NCBI GenBank assembly: GCA_017987115.1
Contig: JAGNUG010000002.1
Span: forward strand, 1 to 64,000
DNA from: Flavobacteriales bacterium
GTDB taxonomy: Bacteria > Bacteroidota > Bacteroidia > Flavobacteriales_F > PHOS-HE28
Length of the DNA stretch: 64,000 nucleotides
Reading direction: 5' to 3'
The stretch's first letter is position 1; every line of letters starts with the position of its first letter. Positions 1,779 through 55,802 of the stretch are shown here, in pieces. A program made the translations under genes and the position numbers. The notes beneath the pieces are model-generated. The model was not told the origin of the DNA, did no database searches, and saw only the letters and a program-made list of their open reading frames with translations.

Positions 1779-2765
1779 CTACTTCACCTCCGCCAACTTC
1801 CCCTTCAGCATATTGATCACTGCGATCTCGCTCGGGTCAACATCTTTTTTCTGCGCCCAGTATAAGCTCACCCAATCGCCGAGGTTGATCAGATACAGCT
1901 GACGTGCGAATGATGTGTCGCCCTTGCTCCAGACCTCGAAGATGTTCGGTGTGTATTTCTCAAAGATGCTTTTGTTGATCTCCATGCGCATCTGCGTCCG
2001 TTCATGGTCTTCTTTGTGTCGGAAGATGACAACACCCAAACTTTTATCGCCACCGGCCCATCCGACCAGCTCGTTGTGGTTCATTTCCGGAATGGCGTGG
2101 TGCCAACACAGTTCTTTGCTGTTCTCGTTCACTTGTTGACGGAACCGGATGCTCACGGCCTCGGTATTTGCTTCGCTGTATATCACCAAGCGCTTGCCTA
2201 CTAATTTTTCAGTGAGATCCATAGCTGCTTTTTGGATGTGTGCTTTATCATCCTGCAACATGTTCGCAGCGGTGTTGATAGCACCTTCGAAACCATCGCC
2301 ACAGATCCCAAAATGACGCAACAAGAAGAACTGTTGGACCAATGAATACGCCAACATGGTGCGTGGTGGGTTGCCACCGGGAATAACGATATGGTCCAAG
2401 CCTTTCGCTTTGGCCATCTCCAACATGGTACCGCCACTGGTCACCACACATACGCGGGCACCTTTGTTCAGGGCTTGTTCCATGGCGGCCAAGGTCTCTT
2501 CGGTATTGCCGCTATAACTGCAAGCGATCACCAAACTCTTATGGTTCACATAACCCGGCAGGTAATAGTTGCTATACACTTCGATCGGGCATTTTGCTTC
2601 CTTGCTCAACAATTGAGCTGCAATACGACCGCCAATTCCGCTGCCACCTAAGCCGGTAACAACCACATTGGAATATGGCCCTCCGGGTGCTTTGAGCTGG
2701 GCTTTACGGCCGATCTCAAGGGCCTCTTTCAATTGCTTAGGAAATGCGTCGATCAAGTTTTGCAT
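1779..2765 (-). CDS. Bifunctional phosphoglucose/phosphomannose isomerase
   Basis: Interconverts fructose-6-phosphate with glucose-6-phosphate and mannose-6-phosphate in the cytoplasm, feeding glycolysis and sugar-nucleotide synthesis. The 328-residue protein has two SIS domains. The first has NVVVTGLGGSGIGGRIAAQL near residues 35-55 and the conserved ACSYSGNTEET serine/threonine loop around residue 80. The C-terminal half has PEMNHNELVGW, which carries the catalytic-type Glu and His of this PGI/PMI subfamily. I chose the ATG at 2765 because the protein then starts MQNLIDAFPKQL, as relatives do; the longer frame adds a low-complexity basic leader. It is not the classical large Pgi. Confidence 0.9.
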   Translation of the reverse strand: MQNLIDAFPKQLKEALEIGRKAQLKAPGGPYSNVVVTGLGGSGIGGRIAAQLLSKEAKCPIEVYSNYYLPGYVNHKSLVIACSYSGNTEETLAAMEQALNKGARVCVVTSGGTMLEMAKAKGLDHIVIPGGNPPRTMLAYSLVQQFFLLRHFGICGDGFEGAINTAANMLQDDKAHIQKAAMDLTEKLVGKRLVIYSEANTEAVSIRFRQQVNENSKELCWHHAIPEMNHNELVGWAGGDKSLGVVIFRHKEDHERTQMRMEINKSIFEKYTPNIFEVWSKGDTSFARQLYLINLGDWVSLYWAQKKDVDPSEIAVINMLKGKLAEVK

Positions 2766-2831
2766 GTGGTGTTTTCGTCTTTTCTCTGGGGTCAAATTTA
2801 CACCCGTCATACGAAGTCAAGCCCGCAATAG

Positions 2832-3131
2832 TTATCGCTTTAGCCTCAGCTTTTGCTCAGGGTGCTGTCTGGTATTGAAAACGCGCACCACATTGATCTG
2901 TTGCAATTTGACGTCGTAAACGATGAAATACGCAAAGCGTTCCATGGGGAACTGACGAATGGTGCCACGAATACCAACACCACCGGAAGTGTTTTGCTGT
3001 AATAAGCCTATCGTATTTTGCAATTCGCTCGGAATTAGCAAGGTAAGTTGCGGTCGAATAGGTTTATGGAACCTCAAGGCCTTGTCAATGTCGGACTTTG
3101 CCTTGGGAGAAAAGGACACGGGTAGGCTCAT
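2832..3131 (-). CDS. RelE/ParE-family toxin
   Basis: Small basic protein (99 residues) with the RelE/ParE plan: an N-terminal FSPKAKSDIDKAL helix, a central GIRGTIRQFPMERFAYFIVYDV strand pair and an end of INVVRVFNTRQHPEQK. RelE members cut mRNA on the ribosome and ParE members poison gyrase; the sequence alone does not tell which. The ATG at 3131-3129 overlaps the stop of the upstream antitoxin (ATGA), so the two are translationally coupled. A longer frame exists to 3173 but would overlap the antitoxin and adds residues unlike the family. Confidence 0.82.
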   Translation of the reverse strand: MSLPVSFSPKAKSDIDKALRFHKPIRPQLTLLIPSELQNTIGLLQQNTSGGVGIRGTIRQFPMERFAYFIVYDVKLQQINVVRVFNTRQHPEQKLRLKR

Positions 3132-3361
3132 TTCCCCATCGACCTCAACGCTTTCGCTTTTACATCTGACCAAGGAATGCTTTTGATCGTTCCATTGCTC
3201 ATCCCCTCGGAGATAGCTATGAACTCTTTTATCTCGGCCTCATTGAACTGTTGCTCGGTCCCAGCGGAAAGAACATGCTCAACCATCGCTAGCGTTTTGG
3301 TGTCAGTAGTATCCAATACACGCTTAGCCAATTCGATGCGCTTATCTTCTTTTTTGCCCAT
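3128..3361 (-). CDS. Antitoxin of the RelE/ParE-type pair
   Basis: A 77-residue acidic-helical protein directly upstream of, and overlapping by four bases with, the RelE/ParE toxin. Antitoxin-first order with ATGA coupling is the usual type II layout. It has no clear DNA-binding domain. The N-terminal half is helical with many charged residues. The C-terminal half (EGMSNGTIKSIPWSDVKAKA) resembles the toxin-wrapping tail of short Bacteroidota antitoxins that carry a WSxVK-like end. The call rests mainly on context. Confidence 0.72.
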   Translation of the reverse strand: MGKKEDKRIELAKRVLDTTDTKTLAMVEHVLSAGTEQQFNEAEIKEFIAISEGMSNGTIKSIPWSDVKAKALRSMGK

Positions 3362-3483
3362 TTTCCCGGTGAGATCTGCATCTCAAAATTAAGCATTCCT
3401 GCCGACTATTGTTTATGGCGTCCATGTAGACTTTGGTTCACTGCATACCGGTATCTTCGCGGCCGCTGAATAAGCAATTCATT

Positions 3484-5001
3484 ATGTCCCAGAACCTTTC
3501 AGATCAAGAAGTGATCCGCCGCGGATCACTTACCAAGCTTCGCGCATTGGGCATTGAGCCGTTCCCTGCAGCTCAATTCCCGGTATCGCATACTGCAGAA
3601 CAAGTAAAAGCCTTGGCTGTGGACGAGGAGGGGGTAGACCTGCTTGTTCTAGCGGGTCGCCTTATGAGCGTTAGGGTAATGGGCAAAGCATCGTTCGCTG
3701 TGTTGCGCGACCATACAGGTGATCAGCAGATCTATGTGAACCGCGATGAGATCTGTCCCGGTGAGGATAAATCGCTCTATAACGACGTATTCAAGAAGCT
3801 TCTTGATCTCGGTGATCTCATCGGTGTGAAAGGGCACATGTTCATCACACAAACGGGTGAGCTCACACTGCGCGTTAAGGAATTGACATTGCTAGCGAAA
3901 TCACTTCGCCCCTTACCTGTTGTAAAGACCGATGAGGATGGCAATGTACATGATGCATTCGGGGACCCGGAGTTGCGATACCGTATGCGGTACGTTGATC
4001 TGATCGTGAACCCGAATGTGCGCGAGACCTTCTTGAAACGGACGCGGATCTTCGATGCGATGCGCAAGGCATTCCAGACGGCGGGTTACATCGAGGTTGA
4101 TACCCCGGTCCTTCAGGCTATTCCAGGCGGCGCAGCAGCGCGTCCTTTCGAGACGCATCATAATGCATTGGATGTTCCATTCTATTTGCGCATTGCGAAC
4201 GAACTTTACTTGAAGCGCTTGATCGTTGGTGGTTTCGAAGGTGTGTTCGAGTTCAGCAGGAACTTCCGGAACGAAGGAATGGACCGGACCCATAACCCCG
4301 AATTCACGGTGATGGAACTGTACGTTGCATACAAAGATTATCGCTGGATGATGGAATACATGGAAGAGGTCTTCGCAAACGTTGCGATTGCCGCGAATGG
4401 TTCCGAGAAGGCCACGTTCCAAGGAAAAGAGATCCAGTTCAAAGCTCCGTTCAAGCGTATTACGATGTGCGGTTCGATCATGGAAAAAACAGGTGTCGAC
4501 CCACTTGAGGCTACTGAAAAAGAGCTCGGTGAGCTGTGTTTGAAACATGGCGTTGAAGTGACCGCAGCTATGGGCAAAGGCAAGTTGATCGACGAGTTGT
4601 TCAGTGAGTTGGTACAACCCGAATTGATCCAACCCACTTTCGTGATGGATTTCCCGTTGGAGATGAGCCCGCTTTGCAAAAAGCATCGGGATGATGATCG
4701 ACTAACGGAGCGTTTCGAGTTGTATATCGGTGGATTCGAAGTGGCCAATGCCTATAGCGAATTGAACGATCCGATCGATCAACGCGAACGCTTTGAGGAA
4801 CAGGTCAAATTGATGGAACGCGGAGATGATGAGGCCATGTTCATCGATCAGGATTTCTTACGCGCTCTGGAATACGGCATGCCACCGACGAGTGGTATCG
4901 GTATCGGAATGGATCGGTTGGTGATGCTCCTAACGGATAATCCAGCGATCCAGGAAGTGCTACTATTCCCACAGATGCGGCCAGAGAAATTTGATCAGTA
5001 G
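3484..5001 (+). CDS. lysS: Lysyl-tRNA synthetase (class II)
   Basis: Charges tRNA-Lys with lysine. The 505-residue protein has an N-terminal OB-fold anticodon-binding domain (about residues 45-150) and a class II catalytic core. Motif 2 is seen as FRNEGMDRTHNPEFT with MELYVAYKDY after it, and motif 3 as GIGIGMDRLVMLLT near the C-terminus. An in-frame upstream start at 3433 would add 17 residues of no family likeness. I prefer the ATG at 3484, which gives MSQNLSDQEVIRRGSLTKLR, as in relatives. The stop is only four bases from the end of the convergent cyclophilin gene. Confidence 0.96.
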   Translation: MSQNLSDQEVIRRGSLTKLRALGIEPFPAAQFPVSHTAEQVKALAVDEEGVDLLVLAGRLMSVRVMGKASFAVLRDHTGDQQIYVNRDEICPGEDKSLYNDVFKKLLDLGDLIGVKGHMFITQTGELTLRVKELTLLAKSLRPLPVVKTDEDGNVHDAFGDPELRYRMRYVDLIVNPNVRETFLKRTRIFDAMRKAFQTAGYIEVDTPVLQAIPGGAAARPFETHHNALDVPFYLRIANELYLKRLIVGGFEGVFEFSRNFRNEGMDRTHNPEFTVMELYVAYKDYRWMMEYMEEVFANVAIAANGSEKATFQGKEIQFKAPFKRITMCGSIMEKTGVDPLEATEKELGELCLKHGVEVTAAMGKGKLIDELFSELVQPELIQPTFVMDFPLEMSPLCKKHRDDDRLTERFELYIGGFEVANAYSELNDPIDQRERFEEQVKLMERGDDEAMFIDQDFLRALEYGMPPTSGIGIGMDRLVMLLTDNPAIQEVLLFPQMRPEKFDQ

Positions 5002-5005
5002 TGCG

Positions 5006-6865
5006 CTACTTCGCTGTTCGTTCGATCGACTCCATTACGTCACCGACCTGTAGTTTCAGTACGACGCTCATTCCGTTCACGACTTCGCCGAAACGGGTAT
5101 AACGACCATCCAAATGTGGCGTTGCACTGTGCGTAATGAAGAACTGACAACTTTCCGTATCGCGACCCGCGGAAGCAAGGCCGAGAGACCCGGTACTGAA
5201 TAAGTTGAGACAGATCTCCGTACGCAATGTCCACGGCATGCCGCCGTATCCATCGCCACGCGGACAACCACCCTGCACCACGAAATTTGGAACCATTCGA
5301 TGGAATGCTTTGCCATTGTAATATCCCGCGGTGACCAATGAGTCGAACGCGAGACAACTTCCAGGAGCTCCATTGACATCCGTAGCAATGATGATCGTTC
5401 CTTTCTTTGTTTTGATCGTGTAGCGCTGGCCTTGTTGCAATTGCTTTAACCGCACGGTGTCGATCGGGTGGTTGAATGCTATCACGGGATGATCAGGAAT
5501 AGGCGCCCCGTCGCGTTTAGCTGCTAATATTCCGATCAACGATCTCGCTTCGAGATCCTGGATGGTCTTCAAAGATCCGAGCGATCCCATTTCAAGGTCA
5601 TTCGGAAAAAGGATTATGAGGTCCCTTGGGTCTACTTGTTGAAGGTCCTCTGCAGCCGCGCTTATCAATCCAGGGTTTCCGCTTTCCATGACCGACCGGA
5701 AGAATGGTGCAGCTTGTTCCACCTGTAGGTCATGTGGGACCGCTCTCGGCCTGTTCATCCGTGCGAGTGTTCGTTCAGCCAAGATCCGGTAGGCGGCATA
5801 GGACATCGCTGGGTGTGCGTTACTGATCATGATCCCGCTCATCGTTGCCTCAATACCGGGTTCTTCATCCGCGGCCATTGCTGTGAACCGGGCAGCTTCA
5901 GCATAAGGCTCACGAATGATCATCCTTCGAATGGAATCGCGAGCCATTCCTCTTGTTGAGTTGTGCGGAAATAATAAAGCGTAGTAATTCAGTCGGGTAA
6001 TAGGATCGAGTCGATCAACCTGGGTTTGGATCTGCAAGAGGATCCTTGGGTCCAGCTGTTCCGCTTTTGCATTAAGCGTTTCCAGTATTGCAGTACGAAA
6101 GGTCAATTCGGGATCAGCGATGTTGCGAGCAAGTTCGTTCAACGTAGTCCCATCATTGGAACTTCCAAGTACGCGTGCAGCATTGACACGCACGGCGACC
6201 GGTTGTTCAACACTTAACAAGGAACGAAGCAATTCATCTTTTCCGGGACCATCCGACTTTGCCAAGCCGCGCACAAGAAGTGCTTTTGCGTCGGTGTCCT
6301 TTTCATGGTTGATCAATTTGAAATAGGTATCGGTGATCCTGTTCAGCTCCTTTGCATCGACCCGGCGAAGCGCATCTGCAACACGTGCACGGTCCTGTCC
6401 AATACTTTTCTCCAAAAGCGATATGAGCTCTTCTGAACTGCGCGAAACCGGCATTCGGTGTACGGCCATGATCAACGCACTGTGATAAGCGCTACGTACA
6501 GTGCTGTCAGTCTCTTGCGCATAATTGGTTTTCAAAGTCGAAACGATTGAACTATCCGCGATGAAACCTATCGCGAATACAGCAGCACTTCGAACAGCCG
6601 CAGTACTATCGCTCAGCGCGTTCATCAAACACGACAATGAGGCACTATCCTGAACCGAAGCAAATGCAAGTCCTGCGGCTTCACGGACCTCGTCATTTCC
6701 ATTGGCCAGTAAAGAACAAAGCGTTTCCGCATCACGGTGTTCCTGTGCGTTAAGTACTGATAGCATGGCACTGTTGCTCCATTTATTCGGAGCATGTTCT
6801 ACAGGGTCGGTCGGTTGTACACAACCGACCAGAACGAGCAGTGGAATAAATACTAGTTGTCGCAT
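5006..6865 (-). CDS. HEAT-repeat lipoprotein with C-terminal cyclophilin domain
   Basis: Predicted envelope lipoprotein of 619 residues. It starts MRQLVFIPLLVLVGC, a lipobox with Cys at about residue 15. Residues 35 to about 430 hold alpha-helical HEAT-like repeats (for example VREAAGLAFASV and VRSAAVFAIGFI). The last 150 residues are a cyclophilin-type peptidyl-prolyl isomerase domain with FHRMVPNFVVQGG, GTIIIATD and FFITHSATPHLDGRYTRFGE. Such a protein probably helps fold exported proteins; that role is inferred. A GTG at 6883 overlaps the stop of the upstream DUF1232-like gene (GTGA) and is an alternative start adding six residues before the same signal peptide. Coupling to the upstream gene is likely either way. 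Confidence 0.85.
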   Translation of the reverse strand: MRQLVFIPLLVLVGCVQPTDPVEHAPNKWSNSAMLSVLNAQEHRDAETLCSLLANGNDEVREAAGLAFASVQDSASLSCLMNALSDSTAAVRSAAVFAIGFIADSSIVSTLKTNYAQETDSTVRSAYHSALIMAVHRMPVSRSSEELISLLEKSIGQDRARVADALRRVDAKELNRITDTYFKLINHEKDTDAKALLVRGLAKSDGPGKDELLRSLLSVEQPVAVRVNAARVLGSSNDGTTLNELARNIADPELTFRTAILETLNAKAEQLDPRILLQIQTQVDRLDPITRLNYYALLFPHNSTRGMARDSIRRMIIREPYAEAARFTAMAADEEPGIEATMSGIMISNAHPAMSYAAYRILAERTLARMNRPRAVPHDLQVEQAAPFFRSVMESGNPGLISAAAEDLQQVDPRDLIILFPNDLEMGSLGSLKTIQDLEARSLIGILAAKRDGAPIPDHPVIAFNHPIDTVRLKQLQQGQRYTIKTKKGTIIIATDVNGAPGSCLAFDSLVTAGYYNGKAFHRMVPNFVVQGGCPRGDGYGGMPWTLRTEICLNLFSTGSLGLASAGRDTESCQFFITHSATPHLDGRYTRFGEVVNGMSVVLKLQVGDVMESIERTAK

Positions 6866-6879
6866 TGTAAGTTCAAAGT

Positions 6880-7098
6880 TCACTGACTTCCGAAGTCAAT
6901 AGTTTTATTTCCGAACAGCTTGGTAAGGTCCCAGCCAAAATAGCGCAATGCGGCAAGTAGGACCATTGTGGCTGTAGCTTCGTCGATATTGCCAATGAGC
7001 GGCAGATTGTCCGGCAAGATCTCAAATACTCCCCAAGTAGGGTTCATTAAGTAGATGAAGGAAAGGATGCCTGCCAACGTAATAAGAATTCTTTTCAT
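6880..7098 (-). CDS. Small DUF1232-like membrane protein
   Basis: A 72-residue protein with two hydrophobic stretches. It has ILPDNLPLIGNIDEATATMV, which matches the DUF1232 (YkvA) pattern of a P(D)xxPxxGxxDD-like core followed by a hydrophobic helix. Its function is unknown. The ATG at 7098 gives MKRILITLAGILSF, a good membrane start; an upstream ATG at 7119 adds seven residues. It sits directly upstream of, and overlaps, the HEAT/cyclophilin lipoprotein gene. It is divergent from the M28 peptidase, with about 60 bases of shared promoter space. Confidence 0.65.
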   Translation of the reverse strand: MKRILITLAGILSFIYLMNPTWGVFEILPDNLPLIGNIDEATATMVLLAALRYFGWDLTKLFGNKTIDFGSQ

Positions 7099-7157
7099 TT
7101 CCTGATCGTGGTGGACCAAAGTAAGAAGGCTTGGCCTCGAGTATCTTAGCCGCAGAA

Positions 7158-8828
7158 ATGAACTATTACCTGATCACGCTTTTTACCTGCCTTGCCGCTC
7201 CATTGATCGTTCATGGCCAACCGGAACCGGATAGCATTGCTATTGCGCACATGCAGACAGATGTTCGCTTTCTTGCAAGTGATGCGCTGGAAGGCCGTGA
7301 GTCCGGTACACCCGGAGAGAAACTGGCCGCTGATCATGTGGTTGAGCAATTCAAGTCCATCGGACTGAAGCCGATGGGTGATGATGGAACGTTCTTGCAA
7401 GCGTTCACATTCAACGGGCAGCCTGAGCTTGGTTCTGCAAATCGGTTGAATATCGGCCGTTCGGTGTTGAAGTTGAACGAACAGTTCTATCCGTTGGCTT
7501 TTTCGGCAAGCGCAGGTGTTCGTGGCAAAGTGATGAAGGTGGGTTATGGCATTGATGCGCCGGACCTGGACCAGAATGATTACGCGAACATCGAAACACA
7601 AGGCCGAATAGTGGCGATCAACATCAGTTCGCCGGATGGGATCCACCCGCACAGCAAATACTTGGCTTATCATGATCTGCACGCACGCGCTGAGAAAGCG
7701 ATCGAGAAAGGCGCGATAGGAGTGTTGTTCTATACCGATGACCCGGATGTTGAAGTGCCATCTGAAGAACTGAATGCAAAGGTCACAGCGTGTAAGGTGC
7801 CTGTCGTTTTTGTAAAAGGTAATCTGCACATCGACCTGATCGTGGACAATAATCCTTGTGTGATCAATACGGACATTCAGCGCCCGCAACTGACCGCATA
7901 CAATGTTGTTGGTCTCTTGGATAATGGTGCAGAACATGTAGCCGTGATGGGTGCGCATTTCGATCATCTTGGTTGGGGCGATGAAGGTTCTTTACATCGC
8001 GGGGAGAAAGCGATCCACAATGGAGCGGATGATAATGCCAGCGGCGTGGCCACGATCATACAACTGGCTCGTGACCTGACGAATATTGAGAATGCGAAAG
8101 CCAATGATGTGTTGTTCATCGCATTCAGTGGAGAAGAAAAGGGTCTATTCGGATCGAACTATTGGACCAAGCACCCAACGGTGCCAATAGAAGAATTGAA
8201 CTATATGATCAACTTGGATATGGTTGGTCGGCTGGATACATCCGGTGTGATCGGCATCAATGGTGTTGGCACTTCGCCAGCATGGGCTGATGTGGATAGT
8301 TTAGCAGCCGGTGATCTGCGGACCAAGACAACGTCAAGTGGTGTCGGACCAAGTGACCATACGAGCTTTTATCTACAAGGTGTCCCTGCGATCCATTTCT
8401 TTACGGGTACTCATGAGGATTATCATAAGCCAAGTGACGATGAGGAAAAGGTCAACTACGAAGGAATGGTCCGCGTGATGCGGTACATCGAAGCACTTGT
8501 CGTGGACCTGAACGATAATGGGAAACTGGAATTCACGAAAACCATAGATACGAACTCAGAGGATGTTCCACGCTTCAAAGTGACACTTGGCGTGGTGCCG
8601 GATTATCTGTTCGATGGAAAAGGAATGCGGATCGATGGTGTTACAGAAGGCAAGCCTGCTTCGAATGCAGGATTGAGGCCGGGTGATGTCGTGATCAAAA
8701 TGGGACCGGTCGATGTGACCGATATGATGAGCTACATGAAAGGACTTAGCGTTTTTAATGCTGGCGATACTGCACCAGTAACAGTGGTGCGTGATGGGAA
8801 GGAGATCGAAACGAGTGTTACGTTCTAA
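7158..8828 (+). CDS. Secreted M28-family zinc peptidase with PA and PDZ domains
   Basis: A 556-residue exported aminopeptidase-like protein. The signal peptide is MNYYLITLFTCLAAPLIVHG. A protease-associated insert follows (about 130-260). The M28 catalytic core shows the zinc ligands in order: AHFDHLGWGD, NGADDNASG, the catalytic pair in FSGEEKGLFG, NLDMVGRLD, and a late SDHTSFY. The C-terminal 100 residues form a PDZ domain (GVTEGKPASNAGLRPGDVVIKM). Relatives trim peptides outside the cytoplasm. The start at 7158 is chosen for the signal peptide. The stop overlaps the gpsA start (TAATG), so the two are coupled. Confidence 0.92.
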   Translation: MNYYLITLFTCLAAPLIVHGQPEPDSIAIAHMQTDVRFLASDALEGRESGTPGEKLAADHVVEQFKSIGLKPMGDDGTFLQAFTFNGQPELGSANRLNIGRSVLKLNEQFYPLAFSASAGVRGKVMKVGYGIDAPDLDQNDYANIETQGRIVAINISSPDGIHPHSKYLAYHDLHARAEKAIEKGAIGVLFYTDDPDVEVPSEELNAKVTACKVPVVFVKGNLHIDLIVDNNPCVINTDIQRPQLTAYNVVGLLDNGAEHVAVMGAHFDHLGWGDEGSLHRGEKAIHNGADDNASGVATIIQLARDLTNIENAKANDVLFIAFSGEEKGLFGSNYWTKHPTVPIEELNYMINLDMVGRLDTSGVIGINGVGTSPAWADVDSLAAGDLRTKTTSSGVGPSDHTSFYLQGVPAIHFFTGTHEDYHKPSDDEEKVNYEGMVRVMRYIEALVVDLNDNGKLEFTKTIDTNSEDVPRFKVTLGVVPDYLFDGKGMRIDGVTEGKPASNAGLRPGDVVIKMGPVDVTDMMSYMKGLSVFNAGDTAPVTVVRDGKEIETSVTF

Positions 8829-9823
8829 TGGCTGAACAGCGTATTGCAGTTATAGGCGCGGGTAGTTGGGGTACAGCCTTGGTGAAATTGCTTTCAGCGA
8901 ATCGGGAGCGTGTTGGTTGGTGGGTTCGGCGGGCTGACACGATAAAACACATCAATGCATTCGGACATAATCCGGATTACATCAGTGCTGCTCAATTCGA
9001 ACCTTCACGATTGGCAATGGATACGGATATCCATGCCGTAGTGCAGAATGCCGATGTGTTGATCATCGCAGTTCCAAGTGCGTTCCTCAAAGCAACAATG
9101 GACCTATTACGACCCGGTGATATAAAGGGCAAGACAGTATACAGTGCGGTCAAGGGTATCGTGCCGGAAACGAATCAGATCGTAGGTCAATTTCTTTTCA
9201 ATGAATTCGATGTTGCTGAGAAGGATTTTGGTGTGATCTGCGGTCCGTGCCATGCGGAAGAAGTTGCCATGGAGCGCTTGAGCTACTTGACGATCGCTTG
9301 TCAGGATCAGGACAAGGCCAAAGCCATGGGCGATGCACTGAACGGGCGTTTCATGAAGACCACGTTGAGTGATGATATCTATGGAACGGAATACGCAGCG
9401 ATCCTGAAGAACGTGATCGCAGTCTGTGCCGGGATAAGCGTGGGTCTTGGGTATGGCGATAATTTTCGTGCGGTCCTGGTGAGCAGGGCCATTCAGGAGA
9501 TCGAACGTTTTGTTGCCGCCGTGCATCCCATTGCGCGTGACATCAATGAACCAGCGTATCTCGGTGACCTGTTGGTAACCGCTTATTCGACCTTCAGCCG
9601 CAACCGCGAGTTCGGCAACATGATCGGCCGAGGATATAGCGTACGGGCTGCCCAAATGGAAATGAACATGGTGGCCGAAGGATACTACGCCGTTAAGTGC
9701 GTGCATGCGATCAATGAAAAATATGGCGTGGACATGCCCATAACCGAAGCGACATATAGGATCCTGTACGAAAAAATGGCGCCCATCATTGAGATGCGAT
9801 TGCTGAGTGATAAACTAGCGTAA
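8828..9823 (+). CDS. gpsA: Glycerol-3-phosphate dehydrogenase [NAD(P)+]
   Basis: Reduces dihydroxyacetone phosphate to sn-glycerol-3-phosphate for phospholipid synthesis. The 331-residue protein has the N-terminal dinucleotide fold (GAGSWGTAL), the SAVKGI segment, ICGPCHAEEVA, and the helical domain with EYAAILKNVIAVCAGI, which contains the catalytic lysine. Near the end, ITEATYRILYE is typical. The gene overlaps both its upstream neighbour (M28 peptidase) and its downstream neighbour by one base, giving a tight three-gene unit. Confidence 0.95.
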   Translation: MAEQRIAVIGAGSWGTALVKLLSANRERVGWWVRRADTIKHINAFGHNPDYISAAQFEPSRLAMDTDIHAVVQNADVLIIAVPSAFLKATMDLLRPGDIKGKTVYSAVKGIVPETNQIVGQFLFNEFDVAEKDFGVICGPCHAEEVAMERLSYLTIACQDQDKAKAMGDALNGRFMKTTLSDDIYGTEYAAILKNVIAVCAGISVGLGYGDNFRAVLVSRAIQEIERFVAAVHPIARDINEPAYLGDLLVTAYSTFSRNREFGNMIGRGYSVRAAQMEMNMVAEGYYAVKCVHAINEKYGVDMPITEATYRILYEKMAPIIEMRLLSDKLA

Positions 9824-10056
9824 TGCCTCTACTTCGCTTCCACTGGGATTTCTTCGGACCGGATGCACAGCCCACCGCAGACCACTTCCTAAAGCACCTC
9901 GATACCTTCTGTGGAAAACACTTGATCAAGGGCTATCGACATTGGACCACCGATCACACCGTGCGTGTAGAAGCTACCTTGGAGTGTGATCAAATACACA
10001 TGCTCTTGATCCGCGATGCATTGAAACCAAAACGTGCGGAACGTGTGCTTGAGTAG
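9823..10056 (+). CDS. Small conserved-looking protein downstream of gpsA
   Basis: A 77-residue protein whose ATG overlaps the gpsA stop (TAATG), which supports real translation. It is rich in His, Trp and Phe (FHWDFFGPDAQPTADHFLKHL) and ends KPKRAERVLE. There is no signal peptide or membrane segment. I do not recognise the family with certainty. The position and codon use look genuine, and a stop-to-stop gap of only six bases separates it from the convergent T9SS protein. Confidence 0.65.
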   Translation: MPLLRFHWDFFGPDAQPTADHFLKHLDTFCGKHLIKGYRHWTTDHTVRVEATLECDQIHMLLIRDALKPKRAERVLE

Positions 10057-10062
10057 ATCGGA

Positions 10063-11661
10063 TCAGCGTATGAAACGCACAGTGCTGCGTTGGTCGCCCT
10101 GAACAAGATCCAAAAAGTACACACCGGCCGTGAGGTCTTTGACATTCTCAATGAACTGTTGTGGCCCACTTGGCACACGTGCACTCAGAACGGCCCTGAC
10201 CAATTTACCTGTGCTGTCCAGAATATTCATTTCCACAACACCGTTCGAGAGCAGATCGACGTTGATCTGAAGTTGAGTTCCGTCGTTGTTCAATGCAACC
10301 GTTACTGACAATGGCTCCTTCTCTTGGTCAATTATTCCGGCATTCACATCGCGCACAAGTAATACTTTGAAAACGCGGGTGCTTGCAGCGCTTTGTGTTC
10401 CGGTATTGATGAAGAATACATTGGCCGCACTGCTTTCTATTCCACCAATGATGTGCCCTGCAAGAACAGTGTCACCAGAGAGTTGATCGAGATCAATAAC
10501 GTTATCGAACATGATCGGGTTATATGGTGTTGGAATGAACTCGGCGCCGGCACCGAGCAGGGCTGGCATAGTACCGATAGCAGCCTCTGACATGGCTCCG
10601 GATGCGTTCCGTTGTATTCTGCTGATCGTGTTTACGAAAGGCACGTTCGTATCATCCAAGAGCTGACCATTCATATCAAAATAGTAGCGCCCGATACCAC
10701 CGAAGAACACCGTTGACATCACATTGTCGTTAGTCGAATACACTGGCATGTGTGCCGTATGATATTGGTTCAATAGTTGCTCAAAGACCGGTGCAACGGT
10801 GTAGCCTGATGAGGTAATATCCACCGTGTTCAGCCATGGGATATTACTGCCATATTGGAACACGCCTGAGAATGCGGTAAAGCCTTGTTCGCCATTTGGA
10901 AAGATCTGTGGTACCAGATTGTAATCACGACGATGTAGTTCAAGTGTATCGATCGTTTCCGTGAACCCGATGATATTCATGCTTGAACCGTCGTCATCAA
11001 TACCGAAACGGCGTATCGCGTTAGTGTATTCTTGAATAAAGCCGGGTCCGTGGTCGGGCCCCATTGGATTATATCGCCCGATGAAGCGCTGGCCGCCTAC
11101 CAAATAGAATTCGTTATTCAGGAGCCCCAAGTAGCCTCCTGTAACGGCCATCCGGTCGTCGGCAGTTTGTCGGAAAAATGCATTCGGTGAAGTTCCGTTC
11201 TTGATCGCGCTGATCGCATTTGGAACGTCCACGGCAGCGAGTTGGCCGTGCGTAATATGGTCATTGGCCGTAGGCGAGAAGCCATATCCACCGATGATGT
11301 AAAGTGTATTTCCACGTTGAAAGAACTCGAGATTGGTGCTTTGGAGTTGTTCGAATAATGCGGTTGGTAGTGACGAGAGATCAGCGCTCCAGACCTCATT
11401 CGTGAACGGGTTCAACACATGCCCCATTGTATTGTTCCCAGAAGCCAGGAACGCGGCGAATGGTTGGCGTTGGTGCAACCCATCCGTTCTTCCACCGATC
11501 AACAGCCACTCACCATTGTGCTGGCCCCAAGCGAAAGAATGAATACCCGGCATATCCGGAATAGTAACTTCTTCCAACACTACATTCCGATCCCCGACAT
11601 GCTGCGAAAAAGCGTTGACGAAGAAGAAGACTACTGAAATTGCGAAGTACCGATGGAACAT
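10063..11661 (-). CDS. Secreted propeller-like protein with T9SS type A sorting domain
   Basis: A 532-residue exported protein. MFHRYFAISVVFFFVNAFSQ is the signal peptide, which sets the start at 11661 rather than at the longer frame at 11748. The middle has Kelch-like blocks (GEWLLIGGRTDGLH, NTLYIIGGYGFSPT, NEFYLVGGQRFIG, STVFFGGIGRYYF), suggesting a beta-propeller. The last 80 residues form a T9SS type A sorting domain: a VEMNILDSTGKLVR strand, then LTAGVYFLDLVQG and a basic end. The protein is expected on the cell surface or secreted. Ligand and role are unknown. It lies downstream of the ALDH gene in the same direction. Confidence 0.8.
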   Translation of the reverse strand: MFHRYFAISVVFFFVNAFSQHVGDRNVVLEEVTIPDMPGIHSFAWGQHNGEWLLIGGRTDGLHQRQPFAAFLASGNNTMGHVLNPFTNEVWSADLSSLPTALFEQLQSTNLEFFQRGNTLYIIGGYGFSPTANDHITHGQLAAVDVPNAISAIKNGTSPNAFFRQTADDRMAVTGGYLGLLNNEFYLVGGQRFIGRYNPMGPDHGPGFIQEYTNAIRRFGIDDDGSSMNIIGFTETIDTLELHRRDYNLVPQIFPNGEQGFTAFSGVFQYGSNIPWLNTVDITSSGYTVAPVFEQLLNQYHTAHMPVYSTNDNVMSTVFFGGIGRYYFDMNGQLLDDTNVPFVNTISRIQRNASGAMSEAAIGTMPALLGAGAEFIPTPYNPIMFDNVIDLDQLSGDTVLAGHIIGGIESSAANVFFINTGTQSAASTRVFKVLLVRDVNAGIIDQEKEPLSVTVALNNDGTQLQINVDLLSNGVVEMNILDSTGKLVRAVLSARVPSGPQQFIENVKDLTAGVYFLDLVQGDQRSTVRFIR

Positions 11662-11732: not shown

Positions 11733-13133
11733 CTATTTCATCGACCAACGTGCTAATTTCTCCTTCACCTTCGTGTAAGGCGGGTATTGCAACCCGTGAT
11801 CGATCAGTGTACTGGAGTCAACGATGGACTTCCAATGCGAGAAGGTGTCGAAGCCGCACTTGCCATGGTAGCGGCCCATACCGCTTGTCCCAATGCCTCC
11901 AAAGGGCAATTCGCCATTCGCGAAATGAAACAAACAGTTGTTGATGCACCCGCCACCGAAGGCGATCCGCTCAGTGAAGAAAGCAATGCTCTTGGCGTTT
12001 TTGCTGAACACATAGGTGCTCAACGGGAAGGGGTTCTGGTCGACTAGAGCAAGGACTTCCTCCTTTTCACGCCAGGTGATCACCGGGAGGATCGGACCGA
12101 AGATCTCTTCTTGCATTACGCTGTCGTCGTGGGTCACACCGACAACTACTGACGGTGCGATGTAGCGATCAACACTATCGACTTGACCACCTATCACTGT
12201 TCTGCCTTGACCAAGATAGCCGCGTAGTTTTTCGAAACGTGCTGTGTTGATGATGCGCCCGTAGTGCGATGACTTTTGCGGATCATCACCATAGAAGTCG
12301 ATCAATGTTCTTTGAAGGATCTCCAAGAATTCGTCCTTTCGGTCTTCATGGATCAGCACGTGATCGGGAGCAATGCATGTTTGGCCTGCGTTGAAGTACT
12401 TGCCCCAAGCAATGCGTTTGACCGCTGTTTTCAGATCCACGTAACGATCAACGATGGCCGGACTCTTACCGCCGAGCTCAAGCGTTACTGGTATGAGCTG
12501 TGGAGCAGCCATAACCATGATCTTGCGACCAACGGCAGGGCTTCCGGTGAAGAAGATATGGTCGAACCGGAAACCTGCGACCAATTCTGGAACAACGACT
12601 TTACCCTCTCCGTGTACCAAGTATACATGCTTGGGGTCAAATACCTTAGAAATGATCTTTGCTGTAACTATCGCAGTGTGCGGCGCATCTTCGCTCGGTT
12701 TTACCAGGACACAATTTCCCGCGGAAATGGCAGCGATCAACGGTTCCATTACCAATTGAAACGGATAGTTCCAAGGGGCAATGATCAGTACGACACCAAG
12801 CGGCTCTTTCGTTACCGAGCTACTTGCAATTTGAAGTGATAGCGGTGTTGAGACTTGTTCGGAGCGCGTCCATTCCTTCAGGTGATCCAATGTATGCTGC
12901 AACCCTTGATACACCGTGCCGATCTCGCTAGTGTATGCTTCGAATGGAGGTTTATGAAGATCCTTGTGCAATGCAGCAAGCAACTCTTCTTCATGTGATC
13001 GAATGGCGGTTTGCAGATCCTTCAACGCTTTTCTTCGAGTTCCTAAGGACCTTGTTGCGCCACTTTTGAAGTACGATCGTTGATCGGCAAGTTTTTGAAA
13101 CGTCGTTGACTTGTCGAACGCATGACTATTCAT
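11733..13133 (-). CDS. Aldehyde dehydrogenase, ALDH3-like
   Basis: A 466-residue NAD(P)-dependent aldehyde dehydrogenase. IAPWNYPFQL, FFTGSPAVG, LELGGKSPAIVD (Glu219) and FNAGQTCIAPD (Cys253, catalytic) are in order. The end FDTFSHWKSIVD followed by a Pro-Pro-Tyr near the C-terminus fits the class 3/fatty aldehyde branch rather than ALDH1/2. The likely substrate is a medium- or long-chain aldehyde; that is inferred from subfamily. It lies 21 bases downstream of a glycosyltransferase gene in a minus-strand run with uvrC. Confidence 0.92.
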   Translation of the reverse strand: MNSHAFDKSTTFQKLADQRSYFKSGATRSLGTRRKALKDLQTAIRSHEEELLAALHKDLHKPPFEAYTSEIGTVYQGLQHTLDHLKEWTRSEQVSTPLSLQIASSSVTKEPLGVVLIIAPWNYPFQLVMEPLIAAISAGNCVLVKPSEDAPHTAIVTAKIISKVFDPKHVYLVHGEGKVVVPELVAGFRFDHIFFTGSPAVGRKIMVMAAPQLIPVTLELGGKSPAIVDRYVDLKTAVKRIAWGKYFNAGQTCIAPDHVLIHEDRKDEFLEILQRTLIDFYGDDPQKSSHYGRIINTARFEKLRGYLGQGRTVIGGQVDSVDRYIAPSVVVGVTHDDSVMQEEIFGPILPVITWREKEEVLALVDQNPFPLSTYVFSKNAKSIAFFTERIAFGGGCINNCLFHFANGELPFGGIGTSGMGRYHGKCGFDTFSHWKSIVDSSTLIDHGLQYPPYTKVKEKLARWSMK

Positions 13134-49593: not shown

Positions 49594-50166
49594 TCAACGC
49601 ACAAGGTACCCGTATTCTTGGTACGGTGTTAACAGCACTCCCCGGGCCTCTCCCCGAACATAGAACGCAAAACTTGAATGCGGATATTCCACCGCATCTT
49701 CTGCCAACCTCCAGCGCTTGCTCACCGGGTTTGCATGCATGTAGTGTAGTTTCTGTATGATCATCTTACCATCGAAACATTCAACCAAATCGGTTGATGT
49801 GGCGAAGACGCGGTGTTTCTGGCCGCGTGCACTATCTGATGGTCGCACCCCTTCTCTTAGCGGATCAAGGAGTTTGGAATTTCCTTGTTCTTCTAAGCGT
49901 TGTATGATCTCGTATGCCAAGAACCGCTTGCCATTACCCAACATGGAATTGATCTTACCGCCTTCAGGAACCCGGATAAGGAAGTGGGCATGGTTAGGCA
50001 TTATCGCATAGCCGAAGAAGCGATATCCTTTCTTCTGCGCGATGTGCATCCAATTGTAAATGCAGTCATATGCATTGGTTTCGTGGATCAACGAATGCCA
50101 GCGGAAGCATGTGAACGTGGCGAAAAACACCGCACCATCTTTGCTTTTCATCTGGCGCACGGTCAT
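49594..50166 (-). CDS. REP-associated tyrosine transposase (Y1/HUH type), copy B
   Basis: Same 190-residue RAYT protein as 46375-46947, with all motifs (PNHAHFL, LHYMHANPV) intact. It has a single Pro-to-Leu change near residue 180, due to a G/A difference on the plus strand at 49631 against 46412. Two intact copies within 3.2 kb suggest recent copying or a segmental duplication. Activity cannot be judged from sequence. Confidence 0.88.
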   Translation of the reverse strand: MTVRQMKSKDGAVFFATFTCFRWHSLIHETNAYDCIYNWMHIAQKKGYRFFGYAIMPNHAHFLIRVPEGGKINSMLGNGKRFLAYEIIQRLEEQGNSKLLDPLREGVRPSDSARGQKHRVFATSTDLVECFDGKMIIQKLHYMHANPVSKRWRLAEDAVEYPHSSFAFYVRGEARGVLLTPYQEYGYLVR

Positions 50167-50200
50167 GGAACGAAATTACGGTAGTACGTGCTTGGAGGCC

Positions 50201-50320
50201 GCAGGGTCGCCGAGACGGAAGACCCTGCAGAGGTTTTAAGGTTTTAAGGCTGCAGGGTCGCCGAGACGGAAGACCCTGCAGAGGTTTAGGCTGCAGGGTC
50301 GCCGAGACGGAAGACCCTGC
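50201..50320. repeat. REP hairpin cluster of RAYT element B (three copies)
   Basis: Three copies of the GCAGGGTC...GACCCTGC hairpin begin at 50201, 50252 and 50293, separated by AGAGGTTTTAAGG-type linkers. Confidence 0.85.
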
Positions 50321-50396
50321 AGAGGTTTATTGGCATACGATCCTGCGATCTGCAGTCGCGCCAACTGACCGGCAAACAGCCAACTGAACACCACCT

Positions 50397-53070: not shown

Positions 53071-54078
53071 ATGAAAGTTGCTGTTGTTGGCGCCACCGGA
53101 ATGGTTGGTGAAATGATGTTGAAGGTGCTACAGGAGCGCAAGTTCCCATTCACTGAATTTCTGCCTGTCGCAAGTGAACGCTCCGTGGGTACTTCGATCC
53201 ACTTCAATGGTACCAACCATACTGTGCTTAGCATGGAGCAAGCCGTTGCCCTGAAGCCGGATATTGCTCTATTCTCTGCGGGTGGTGCTGCTTCGCTGGA
53301 GTGGGCACCACGGTTCGCTGAGGTTGGTTGTGTGGTGATCGATAATAGCAGTACGTGGCGCATGGACGCCAGTAAAAAACTGATCGTACCTGAGATCAAT
53401 GGTCACCTGCTTACTGCGGATGACCGCATCATCGCCAATCCGAATTGCAGCACGATCCAGATGGTGATGACCTTGGCGCCATTGCATAAAGCGTACGGGG
53501 TGGAGCGCGTGATCGTATCCACCTACCAATCCGTAAGTGGTACGGGCGTGAAAGCGGTGCAGCAGCTTACCAATGAACGCAACGGTGTGCCCGGTGAAAT
53601 GGCGTACCCCTACCGCATAGAAGGGAACGTGATCCCGCGGTGCGATGTGTTCACGGAGAACGGCTACACCAAGGAGGAAATGAAATTGGTGAATGAAGCG
53701 CAGAAGATCCTGGATCGGAACATCCGCGTTACCGCAACCGCTGTGCGCGTGCCGGTGACCGGTGGGCATAGCGAAGCCGTGAATGTGGAATTCGCGAAGG
53801 AGTTCGAGACAGCGGAGGTTATCCGGTTATTGGAACAGACAGCGGGCATTACCGTTCAGAATGACCCGGGGCAGGACCTGTATCCGATGCCCATGCACGC
53901 CAGTGGAAAGGACGATGTTTTTGTGGGCCGCATCCGTCGGGATGAAACACAGCCACGCACGCTGAACCTCTGGATCGTTTCGGATAACCTGCGGAAGGGA
54001 GCTGCGACCAATGCGGTGCAGATCGCTGAATTATTGGTGAAGGAAGGGTTGGTGAAAACAGTTGTTAGTAGCGTTTGA
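53071..54078 (+). CDS. asd: Aspartate-semialdehyde dehydrogenase
   Basis: Reduces aspartyl phosphate to aspartate semialdehyde for lysine/diaminopimelate, threonine and methionine synthesis. The 335-residue protein starts MKVAVVGATGMVGEMMLKVL. It has the active-site Cys126 in IANPNCSTIQMV, the STYQSVSGTG loop, and the catalytic His in VPVTGGHSEAVNVEF. The length is typical. The last bases (from 54064), including its stop codon, are the start of a 97-base direct repeat found again at 55706. Confidence 0.96.
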   Translation: MKVAVVGATGMVGEMMLKVLQERKFPFTEFLPVASERSVGTSIHFNGTNHTVLSMEQAVALKPDIALFSAGGAASLEWAPRFAEVGCVVIDNSSTWRMDASKKLIVPEINGHLLTADDRIIANPNCSTIQMVMTLAPLHKAYGVERVIVSTYQSVSGTGVKAVQQLTNERNGVPGEMAYPYRIEGNVIPRCDVFTENGYTKEEMKLVNEAQKILDRNIRVTATAVRVPVTGGHSEAVNVEFAKEFETAEVIRLLEQTAGITVQNDPGQDLYPMPMHASGKDDVFVGRIRRDETQPRTLNLWIVSDNLRKGAATNAVQIAELLVKEGLVKTVVSSV

Positions 54079-54160
54079 ACCGTGCGCATAATTTGTGCAT
54101 CGGATCAGTGTTGGTCTTTTCAAATTACCCGTTAAAATGAACAGGTTGTTGAATGCACTT
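54064..54160. repeat. 97-base direct repeat, left copy
   Basis: Matches 55706-55802 at about 81 of 97 positions by hand alignment. It includes the asd stop, the block CCGTGCGCATAATTTGTGCA and a start codon (54137) with GTTGAATGCACTT after it. The right copy is the upstream region and first codons of the barrel-like protein gene; here the frame after MNRLLNALE is unrelated and ends at 54322, so this is a broken gene start. The bases from 54161 to 54271 hold only a GGGTC-rich, REP-like stretch near 54186-54240. Confidence 0.75.
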
Positions 54161-54271
54161 GAATCTCGGAAGGCTTTCCTTTTTGCAGACCCTGAAGCAC
54201 CCGCAGTTCGAAGGGTCCAGAAGCGAAGACCCAGCGAGGGTATAAGATCCGAAGTTCAATGGAAGATCTTG

Positions 54272-54386
54272 ACAGCTAACGCTCTAGTGTGCTTTACATG
54301 CCGTAATAGCGCAATAGATTGAACTCTAAGCACCAACCAAGTCCAGAAATAAACGCAACTGTTGTTACAAGCTACTAGTTAGCGGC
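54272..54386. other. attC-like site 1 (left edge of a cassette array)
   Basis: AGCTAAC at 54274 and GTTAGCGGC at 54378-54386 form the outer arms (GCTAAC/GTTAGC perfect). Inside them CTAGTGTGCTTTAC and GTTACAAGCTACTAG are imperfect inverted arms. The 9-mer GTTAGCGGC recurs exactly at 55003 at the end of site 2, 625 bases later. The layout resembles integron recombination sites; site 1 is the most degenerate. Confidence 0.5.
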
Positions 54387-54396
54387 CAACGTAGTA

Positions 54397-54861
54397 ATGA
54401 AAAGCAGAAAGCTCATGAAGAAAAATTGCGCTGGCGCGGTTTTAGTGATTCTGACAGGCTGTTATTTTGGTGCGAACGAGTCTGGAGGCCGAATTATTGA
54501 CAACTTTCATCTAATCGGATGGGATGAAAGAGATTGGCAGATTGTATACAGTGAAGACAACAAAATATATCATCCTGAAAAAATTATAATAGGACATGAT
54601 GTTTTTGCTGTTGGCAATAACGATGATTTCATAATTGTTAAACAGCATCCTTGTGATAATCCCGTACCTCACCTTGCAGACTTTGATACCCTGCGTCCTG
54701 ACAAAGAGGTCACGAACTACTACATAATAGACATTCGACATGGTAGCCAATCATATAAGCTCCATAAGTTCGCCGACCAGGAAGAATTTGATGAAGAACG
54801 AAGAAAACTTGGAGTTCCGATGGAATTGACCTATAAATTCTACGATGCTAAACTAGATTGA
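54397..54861 (+). CDS. Hypothetical lipoprotein, DUF3997-like, in cassette 1
   Basis: A 154-residue protein with an N-terminal lipobox-like signal (GAVLVILTGCYFG, Cys near residue 27). The start could be M1 or M7 (MKKNCAGAV). The mature part has IGHDVFAVGNNDDFIIVKQH and VTNYYIIDI, a pattern I associate with DUF3997-type lipoproteins of unknown function. The gene is AT-richer than the neighbours and starts 11 bases after attC-like site 1 and ends 24 bases before site 2, the one-gene-per-cassette layout. Confidence 0.7.
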   Translation: MKSRKLMKKNCAGAVLVILTGCYFGANESGGRIIDNFHLIGWDERDWQIVYSEDNKIYHPEKIIIGHDVFAVGNNDDFIIVKQHPCDNPVPHLADFDTLRPDKEVTNYYIIDIRHGSQSYKLHKFADQEEFDEERRKLGVPMELTYKFYDAKLD

Positions 54862-54884
54862 AGTGAAGGTGATTAATAGCGCCG

Positions 54885-55011
54885 GCCGCTAACATGCTCT
54901 TGCCGCAAGCCGCCCTCGTCCCGGTGACAACTCCCGTTGAAGCGATGAACACTTCGTCCAGGAACAAGATCACGAAAGGCGGCCTGCGGCAAGCGCAGGC
55001 CCGTTAGCGGC
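54885..55011. other. attC-like site 2 between the two cassette genes
   Basis: Outer arms GCCGCTAAC (54885-54893) and GTTAGCGGC (55003-55011) are perfect. Inner arms CTTGCCGCAAGCCGCC (54899-54914) and GGCGGCCTGCGGCAAG (54978-54993) match at 15 of 16, with unequal spacers and a 63-base centre. The total of 127 bases is within the attC size range, and the G/TT crossover trinucleotide is present. Confidence 0.7.
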
Positions 55012-55023
55012 AAGCATAAGACA

Positions 55024-55572
55024 ATGACGCAATACACATACATATCATCGATTGACTATATTAACAACTTGACATTTGACTATGTTGAGACGTATTCATT
55101 TCAACGAGGAAGTGAATTTGAGGAAAACAATAAGACAAGTCGACCAGAATATGATAAGTTAAAGGTTAGAAAAGAAAAGCGTAACGATTTGACAGCCCTT
55201 GAAGAAAAACGATTTTTGGAACTACACGACCTTTTTGGGTTCACTCAATATTTAATCAACGACAAAGGACAATTTCATCATTCCAGCACAAAGACACACA
55301 CTTTTAAATCGACAGACCCGAAAATCGATAAACTGAAAAACATTTTGCGGACTGAAATCAAAGATATACCAGCTTGGATGTGCGCGCCAATGTATCGTGA
55401 CGCATTAGTTTTTTATGACAAATCGAACCATATTGTATCGACCTTGAATGTTTGCTTAAGTTGTGAATATATGGAAATCAAAATGTTTAGTCACATAAAT
55501 GGAGACAATAAAACTTACGACTTGTTGAGACAATATTTTATTGACCTTGGACATAAAATTGAAGACAGATAA
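55024..55572 (+). CDS. Hypothetical protein in cassette 2
   Basis: A 182-residue soluble protein, AT-rich in codon use, that starts MTQYTYISSIDYINNLTFDY. It has a charged middle (KLKVRKEKRNDLTALEEKRF) and a C-terminal part VSTLNVCLSCEYMEIKMFSH. There is no signal peptide. I do not recognise the family. It begins 12 bases after attC-like site 2 and ends just before site 3, as a cassette gene would. Base composition differs clearly from asd and lspA nearby, in keeping with transfer. Confidence 0.65.
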   Translation: MTQYTYISSIDYINNLTFDYVETYSFQRGSEFEENNKTSRPEYDKLKVRKEKRNDLTALEEKRFLELHDLFGFTQYLINDKGQFHHSSTKTHTFKSTDPKIDKLKNILRTEIKDIPAWMCAPMYRDALVFYDKSNHIVSTLNVCLSCEYMEIKMFSHINGDNKTYDLLRQYFIDLGHKIEDR

Positions 55573-55580
55573 ATGCCAGC

Positions 55581-55708
55581 AGGTAACAGCACATTTGCAA
55601 TAGGCGGGGTTTTGTACTCCGCAGACAGTTTTGTGGTAGAAGAAAGTTTTGTGCTCCGCATACACATTTGTGCTGAAAAGCCCGCCCATCACAAATCTGC
55701 CAACCGTT
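55581..55708. other. attC-like site 3 (right edge of the cassette array)
   Basis: Inner arms ATTTGCAATAGGCGGG (55593-55608) and CCCGCCCATCACAAAT (55681-55696) match at 13 of 16. Outer sequences GGTAAC (55582-55587) and GTTCC (55706-55710) are weaker. The GTT at 55706 is exactly where the right copy of the 97-base direct repeat begins. Confidence 0.55.
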
Positions 55709-55802
55709 CCAAGCGTTTGATCCGTGCGCATAATTTGTGCAACGGATCATCGTTGTTCTTTTCTTAATACCAATTAACATGAACACGATGTTGAATGCAC
55801 TT
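55706..55802. repeat. 97-base direct repeat, right copy
   Basis: Right partner of 54064-54160. It includes a hairpin TGATCCGTGCGCA/TGTGC-A-ACGGATCA (55719-55750) and the first codons of the gene at 55779. Confidence 0.75.

What the first reader, a model, noticed from the sequence alone, without database searches (positions are those of the whole stretch)
54272..55708. Integron-like cassette pair without an integrase
Three attC-like inverted repeats (115-128 bases) bracket two single genes in the same direction. Site 2 has perfect 9-base outer arms ending in GTTAGCGGC and 15/16 inner arms. GTTAGCGGC is repeated 625 bases earlier at site 1, giving cassettes of about 625 and 703 bases. Both genes are AT-rich and unlike their neighbours. 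No integrase is in the window. This fits a cluster of attC sites lacking an integrase, little described in Bacteroidota.
Basis: partly seen in the sequence, partly recalled or inferred. Interest (0 to 1): 0.65.

Follow-up and report, generated by a model that had tools for sequence, protein, structure and literature searches.

The report
Decayed Bacteroidota integron, non-canonical integrase family
Two small mobile genes in this bacterium sit in the remains of a gene-capture machine that works like an integron; relatives carry it with a recombinase unlike the known integron integrase, in about half of the Bacteroidia genomes sampled, sometimes with antibiotic-resistance-type genes.

Summary
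The cassettes are real, and the integron reading is right but incomplete. Sites 2 and 3 are attC sites: a covariance model built only from other genomes' sites (15 of 16 stem pairs with compensatory changes) finds both in the 64-kb window (88.5 and 75.7 bits) and nothing else convincing. Site 1 is not an attC. It is an attI, 77% identical to a relative's attI, and is preceded by a relic of the last 11 codons of an integrase (KIRSSMEDLDS*). The locus is a decayed integron: integrase relic, attI, cassette (625 bp), attC, cassette (703 bp), attC. In relatives such an attI follows an intact tyrosine recombinase of about 370-450 aa. It is not a TIGR02249 IntI: it lacks the IntI catalytic-domain insertion and carries an N-terminal DUF5710-like domain. 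Homologues occur in 213 of 396 Bacteroidia genomes, against 2 of 396 with canonical IntI; attC-like sites occur in 284. Of 58 listed sites within 30 kb of such a gene, 57 lie downstream on the same strand. Cassettes' 5' R boxes match their own 3' R boxes. Integrons sharing integrase and attI carry different first cassettes, diverging exactly after G^TT. Cargo elsewhere includes AadS-, OXA- and Lnu(H)-type genes. Recombinase activity is inferred, not shown.

The parts
54070..54160 (+). first copy of a 91-bp direct repeat (3' end of the asd gene plus start of the outer-membrane-protein-like gene), truncated; the second copy is at 55712-55802
   Evidence: 86% identical direct repeat; the duplication brackets the whole insert; its origin was not resolved
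54244..54279 (+). relic of the 3' end of the integrase gene (KIRSSMEDLDS*)
   Evidence: matches KIRSPLEDLD at the end of the family (80% over 10 aa, weak alone, E 0.025), directly followed by attI as in intact relatives
   Evidence: 77% identical to the G022 attI over 97 nt (E 3e-17); 74% over 138 nt including the integrase end (E 2e-22); no attC model match
54379..55003 (+). cassette 1 (625 bp), with its own R' GTTAGCGGC and R'' GCCGCTAAC
   Evidence: boundaries at G^TT; own R'/R'' complementary 9/9
54397..54861 (+). cassette 1 gene, 154 aa, DUF3997 lipoprotein-like
   Evidence: PF13162, 29.4 bits against cutoff 25; no NCBIfam or PADLOC match
   Evidence: covariance model R1 88.5 bits, E 1.5e-20 over 284 kb; fold z -5.6; 14 further DNA-similar copies in the genome
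55004..55706 (+). cassette 2 (703 bp)
   Evidence: G^TT boundaries; own R' GTTAGCGGC against rc of R'' GTTACCTGC, 7 of 9
55024..55572 (+). cassette 2 gene, 182 aa, function unknown
   Evidence: no credible family match
   Evidence: covariance model R1 75.7 bits, E 3e-17

Best explanation
The window holds a decayed integron of a Bacteroidota type whose integrase is a tyrosine recombinase distinct from IntI. In working copies the integrase gene is transcribed towards an attI site about 30-110 bp past its stop codon. The enzyme would join circular cassettes (one or a few genes plus an attC hairpin site, used as single-stranded bottom strand) to attI by crossing over between G and TT, giving arrays in one orientation. 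In this window the integrase is reduced to its last 11 codons, leaving attI, two cassettes and two attC sites. Shown by sequence: attI, attC, cassette boundaries, G^TT junctions, and linkage of attC arrays to this recombinase. Inferred: that this recombinase is the enzyme, and that it uses folded single strands.
For: The attC model R1, built from 17 sites of five other genomes, has 16 stem pairs, 15 with changes on both sides; covariation 0.776 against 0.200 shuffled and at most 0.14 slid. It finds both window sites and no match in 50 kb of E. coli or in a class 1 integron. Cassettes' own R'/R'' match in >= 6 of 7 variable bases for 12 of 20 unselected pairs, permuted mean 2.45 of 7, p <= 1e-4. 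attI follows the recombinase in many relatives; the window's attI and relic match them. Natural experiments: G024/G022 share gene (898/900 bp) and 109 bp after it, then diverge exactly after CTAG^TT; G075/G292 likewise (900/900, 117 bp, AAG^TT); G130 and G158 carry the same 1,059-bp cassette (97.6%) at different attI sites, the match starting exactly at G^TT. Linkage: 57 of 58 listed attC-like sites within 30 kb of the gene are downstream on the same strand (30 of 31 contigs, p 2e-17; 25 of 26 without training genomes). Co-occurrence over 396 genomes: odds ratio 9.0, p 5e-19. Assemblies end < 300 bp downstream of the gene in 17 of 84 cases, mostly 90-160 bp, against 1 of 66 upstream. Catalytic R, K, H-x-x-R, H and Y are conserved. 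IntI: 0 of 45 in the genus, 2 of 396 in the class.
Against: No biochemistry. G000 itself has no intact gene of this family, although it is only about 96% complete. Of 213 genomes with the recombinase, 21 lack model hits, and 92 genomes have hits without it, so other integrases or decay must also occur. The relic is only 11 codons and not significant alone. Some homologues at E <= 1e-50 match only the catalytic core and may serve other elements. The strict array walk succeeded in only 9 of 19 inspected loci. The IntI catalytic-domain insertion, called essential for integron function (PMC8138268), is absent here.
Confidence: 0.87

Rival explanations
1. The cassettes are ordinary integron cassettes moved by a canonical IntI acting in trans or since lost; the recombinase next to attI is a passenger.
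For: attC-like sites exist in 92 genomes without the recombinase; some genomes have canonical IntI; clusters lacking IntI are common elsewhere (PMC8618304).
Against: IntI over cut-off in 0 of 45 genus genomes and 2 of 396 of the class, while the closest attC-like site lies downstream of the other recombinase on its strand in 30 of 31 contigs; the IntI-bearing loci checked (L088, L089) carry no model R1 sites.
Confidence: 0.06
2. The window pair is a free cluster of attC sites made by off-target insertion of cassettes (attG type).
For: No intact integrase at the locus; cassette insertion outside integrons is known.
Against: The left boundary is a full-length attI homologue preceded by what looks like the end of the integrase gene, as in intact platforms.
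Confidence: 0.05
3. The hairpins are another repeat (REP/MITE or IS200-like ends, for example of the Y1 transposase gene at 49594-50166) and not recombination sites.
For: A Y1_Tnp-like gene and palindromic repeats lie 4-5 kb away.
Against: R box identity follows the cassette rather than the hairpin; G^TT junctions; one strand and one direction from the recombinase; the palindromes next to the Y1 gene are of different sequence.
Confidence: 0.02

Closest known systems
Chromosomal (sedentary) integrons with IntI, attI and attC
   Same: integrase gene next to attI, arrays of mostly single-gene cassettes in one direction, attC with R and L boxes and an asymmetric spacer, crossover at G^TT, cassettes of mostly unknown function
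   Different: the integrase is below the TIGR02249 cut-off (211.7 against 265 bits), lacks the IntI catalytic-domain insertion, has an N-terminal DUF5710-like extension and forms a separate clade; R boxes vary beyond GTTRRRY
Treponema integrons (PMC3607928)
   Different: Treponema uses canonical IntI
CALIN (clusters of attC sites lacking an integron integrase; PMC9024848, PMC8618304)
   Same: the window locus would be scored so: attC sites and no intact IntI
   Different: attI and an integrase relic are present, and relatives keep a non-IntI integrase
'Integron-like' tyrosine recombinase subgroup of Smyshlyaev et al. 2021 (PMC8138268)
   Different: they call the insertion essential for integron function; no attI or attC arrays are described for members lacking it in the passages read
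attI-type gene cassettes (PMC12901181)
   Same: G000 carries many attI copies inside its arrays
   Different: seen here in Bacteroidota arrays, not class 1 integrons

Membership tests
Integron (system) | attC sites with paired R and L boxes, conserved as structure | tested here: met
Integron (system) | attI beside the integrase gene as entry point | tested here: met
   in the window only the integrase relic remains
Integron (system) | cassettes of one or few genes, each with its own attC, boundaries at G^TT, exchangeable between arrays | tested here: met
Integron (system) | integrase-catalysed excision and insertion of circular cassettes | not testable with these tools
   needs an experiment; assembly breaks at attI are indirect
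IntI integron integrase (TIGR02249) | score over the curated cut-off | tested here: not met
   211.7, 186 and 212.3 bits against 265
IntI integron integrase (TIGR02249) | IntI-specific insertion in the catalytic domain | tested here: not met
   absent in nine family members, present in IntI1 and the G172 IntI; gap in the IntI4 structure alignment
IntI integron integrase (TIGR02249) | clade membership with IntI | tested here: not met
   separate branch, 96/88 support; only three IntI rows, bootstrap not fully settled
XerC/XerD | clade membership or score over XerC/XerD cut-offs | tested here: not met
CALIN | two or more attC without neighbouring IntI | tested here: met
   but attI and an integrase relic show it is a decayed platform

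The most novel reading that the evidence does not exclude
A lineage of integrons, widespread in Bacteroidota and separate from IntI, recombines cassettes with an integrase that lacks the insertion IntI uses to recognise folded attC and relies on another feature, perhaps its N-terminal domain. It would be the main gene-capture system of the class and a vehicle for resistance genes, overlooked because searches look for IntI.
Probability: 0.6. Interest if true: 0.95.

Novelty: new variant of a known kind. Interest (0 to 1): 0.9.

Why it matters
Integrons are taken to be rare in Bacteroidota: IntegronFinder 2.0 reported only In0 earlier and then a complete one in Salinibacter (PMC9024848). Here about half of the sampled Bacteroidia genomes carry a homologue of this integrase and about 70% carry attC-like sites, with cassettes for AadS, class D beta-lactamase-like, Lnu(H)-like and restriction-enzyme proteins in other species. 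If active, a large cassette pool has been hidden from IntI-based searches, and the view that the IntI insertion is needed to recombine attC becomes directly testable with a natural family that lacks it.

Tried and rejected
Rfam scan of the window: no match. A consensus scan for RYYYAAC/GTTRRRY found nothing because R boxes here are not GTTRRRY. The 315-aa recombinase 5.5 kb from a G023 site was taken at first for a candidate integrase but is XerC. The 435-aa recombinase next to single sites in G037 and G041 is a cassette gene with lost catalytic residues, not the integrase. Exact 37-nt site pattern in viral contigs: none. I did not submit structure prediction, because the proteins of interest come from genome-search loci outside that tool's stated scope. 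Ten literature searches found no description of this system, but preprints and most subscription papers are not held. The array walk with strict criteria misses short attC (Rufibacter), which I read by eye. A six-frame comparison of the window cassette proteins with other loci returned nothing, but its input files held invalid rows, so I do not count it as a negative.

Full report
Observation. The two cassettes are there. The R boxes of site 2 are perfect over 9 nt and its inner arms pair 18/20; the bottom strand folds far better than shuffles (z -5.6). Cutting between G and TT gives cassettes of 625 bp (54379-55003) and 703 bp (55004-55706), GC-poor against their surroundings. The genome (3.73 Mb, 202 contigs, about 96% complete) has 14 more copies of site 2 at 83-94% identity, on contigs C17, C133, C46 and C51, so the window is one of several loci.

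Are the sites attC? I built a covariance model from 17 sites of five other genomes (G023 and G002 of the same genus; G071, G158 and G130 of other families). RNAalifold gives one 16-pair stem, 15 pairs with changes on both sides; covariation is 0.776 against 0.200 in shuffles and at most 0.14 when slid. The model finds the window sites at 54884-55012 (88.5 bits) and 55578-55715 (75.7 bits) and no other convincing place in the window; 50 kb of E. coli and a class 1 integron give no match. It does not match site 1.

Cassette logic. In an integron the bases after the crossover travel with the next cassette, so a cassette's 5' R' should pair with its own 3' R'', not with the R'' of the site it lies in. 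With sites chosen without regard to R boxes, 12 of 20 consecutive pairs agree at 6 or 7 of 7 variable bases against 1 of 20 within the same site; permuted mean 2.45 of 7, p <= 1e-4. Several of the others span a skipped site. This is the signature of circular cassettes joined at G^TT.

The integrase. No genome of the genus has IntI over the TIGR02249 cut-off; the search works, finding 2 of 396 in the class. In G023, G037 and G040 another tyrosine recombinase lies upstream of the sites in the same orientation. It is found in 26 of 44 genus genomes, with a region ending in G^TT and a cassette start about 100 bp after its stop, and in 213 of 396 Bacteroidia genomes (118 of 199 genera) at E <= 1e-50. 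Downstream of it lie arrays in other families, for example seven cassettes in a row with 7/7 R box matches in the single-contig genome G336, and six in G071. Named plasmids carry it too: Rufibacter tibetensis plasmid 1 has an array readable by eye, and Chryseobacterium sp. SNU WT5 has a mini-cassette repeated twice.

Natural experiments. G024 and G022 share the gene (898 of 900 bp) and 109 bp after it, then differ at once after CTAG^TT. G075 and G292 do the same (900 of 900; 117 bp; AACAAG^TT). G032 and G034 are alike apart from one base before the junction. G130 and G158 carry the same 1,059-bp cassette (97.6%) behind unrelated attI sequences, the match starting exactly at G^TT.

Genome-scale tests. 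Of the listed attC-like sites within 30 kb of such a gene, 57 of 58 are downstream and on the same strand; by contig 30 of 31, and 25 of 26 without the training genomes (the site lists are cut at the best matches). Across 396 genomes the gene and attC-like sites co-occur (both 192, gene only 21, sites only 92, neither 91; odds ratio 9.0, p 5e-19). Sites are in 284 of 396 Bacteroidia genomes and also in other classes of the phylum. Assemblies end within 300 bp downstream of the gene in 17 of 84 cases against 1 of 66 upstream, as expected if what follows attI varies or repeats.

What the integrase is. Catalytic residues are intact. TIGR02249 matches in two stretches with a gap at the IntI-specific insertion; the alignment with IntI1 and a Bacteroidia IntI shows that insertion missing in all nine members. 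IntI4 is the best solved relative. Pfam adds an N-terminal DUF5710-like stretch. In the tree it branches apart from IntI, XerC and XerD (96/88; only three IntI rows, bootstrap not fully settled). So it works like an integron integrase but is not a member of IntI as defined.

The window. The attI core of G022 is 77% identical to 54284-54380 and 82-91% to ten other places on C17 and C51; three of these eleven (window, C17, C51) are preceded by the last codons of the integrase and nothing more. The genome has no intact gene of the family. The window is therefore a dead or orphan platform. A 91-bp duplication of the asd end and the outer-membrane-protein gene start brackets it; how that arose is open.

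Cargo. Window genes: a DUF3997-like lipoprotein and an unknown. Elsewhere: AadS (511 bits, cut-off 450), an OXA-1327-like class D beta-lactamase and an Lnu(H)-like protein (both below their allele-family cut-offs), and a type II restriction enzyme.

Limits. No experiment; IntegronFinder was not run; 21 genomes have the gene without model hits and 92 the reverse; some homologues match only the catalytic core; prior description cannot be excluded because preprints are not held.

Noticed in passing
L018 (G000:C133) 2000-7450, L016 (C17) and L020 (C51): attI-like copies are multiplied inside the arrays (8 on C17, 2 on C51, plus another 80-bp type on C133), many starting right after an attC G^TT, as if attI itself had become a mini-cassette.
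   Followed up: partly
L047:8730-10037(+) (G037) and L048:9881-11185(-) (G041): Cassette genes directly followed by an attC-like site encode a tyrosine recombinase with lost catalytic residues fused to a C-terminal domain with an RNxCGH (HEPN-like) motif; could be a regulator, inhibitor or toxin.
   Followed up: partly
L156 (G071) 7718-10791, L158 (G158) 1602-2369, L148 (G130) 11991-12758: AadS, OXA-type class D beta-lactamase-like and Lnu(H)-like genes are cassettes of these arrays; the Lnu(H)-like cassette occurs at two different attI sites.
   Followed up: partly
window 49594-50340: Y1 (IS200/RAYT-like) transposase gene next to tandem palindromic repeats CTGCAGGGTCGCCGAGACGGAAGACCCTGCAGAGG, probably REP-like and unrelated to the cassettes.
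   Followed up: no
window 54070-54160 and 55712-55802: 91-bp duplication (asd 3' end plus outer-membrane-protein gene start, 86% identical) brackets the whole integron remnant.
   Followed up: no
L018 (C133) 1-430: Tandem repeats GGGTATACCATACTACTATAG and a lysine-rich coding repeat (AAAATGAAAAAGACAAAGGAACTTGCCGCAAGTACAAAGGAG) at the contig end.
   Followed up: no
L246 (Chryseobacterium sp. SNU WT5 plasmid): A geneless mini-cassette occurs twice in one array and a group II intron lies within the array.
   Followed up: no
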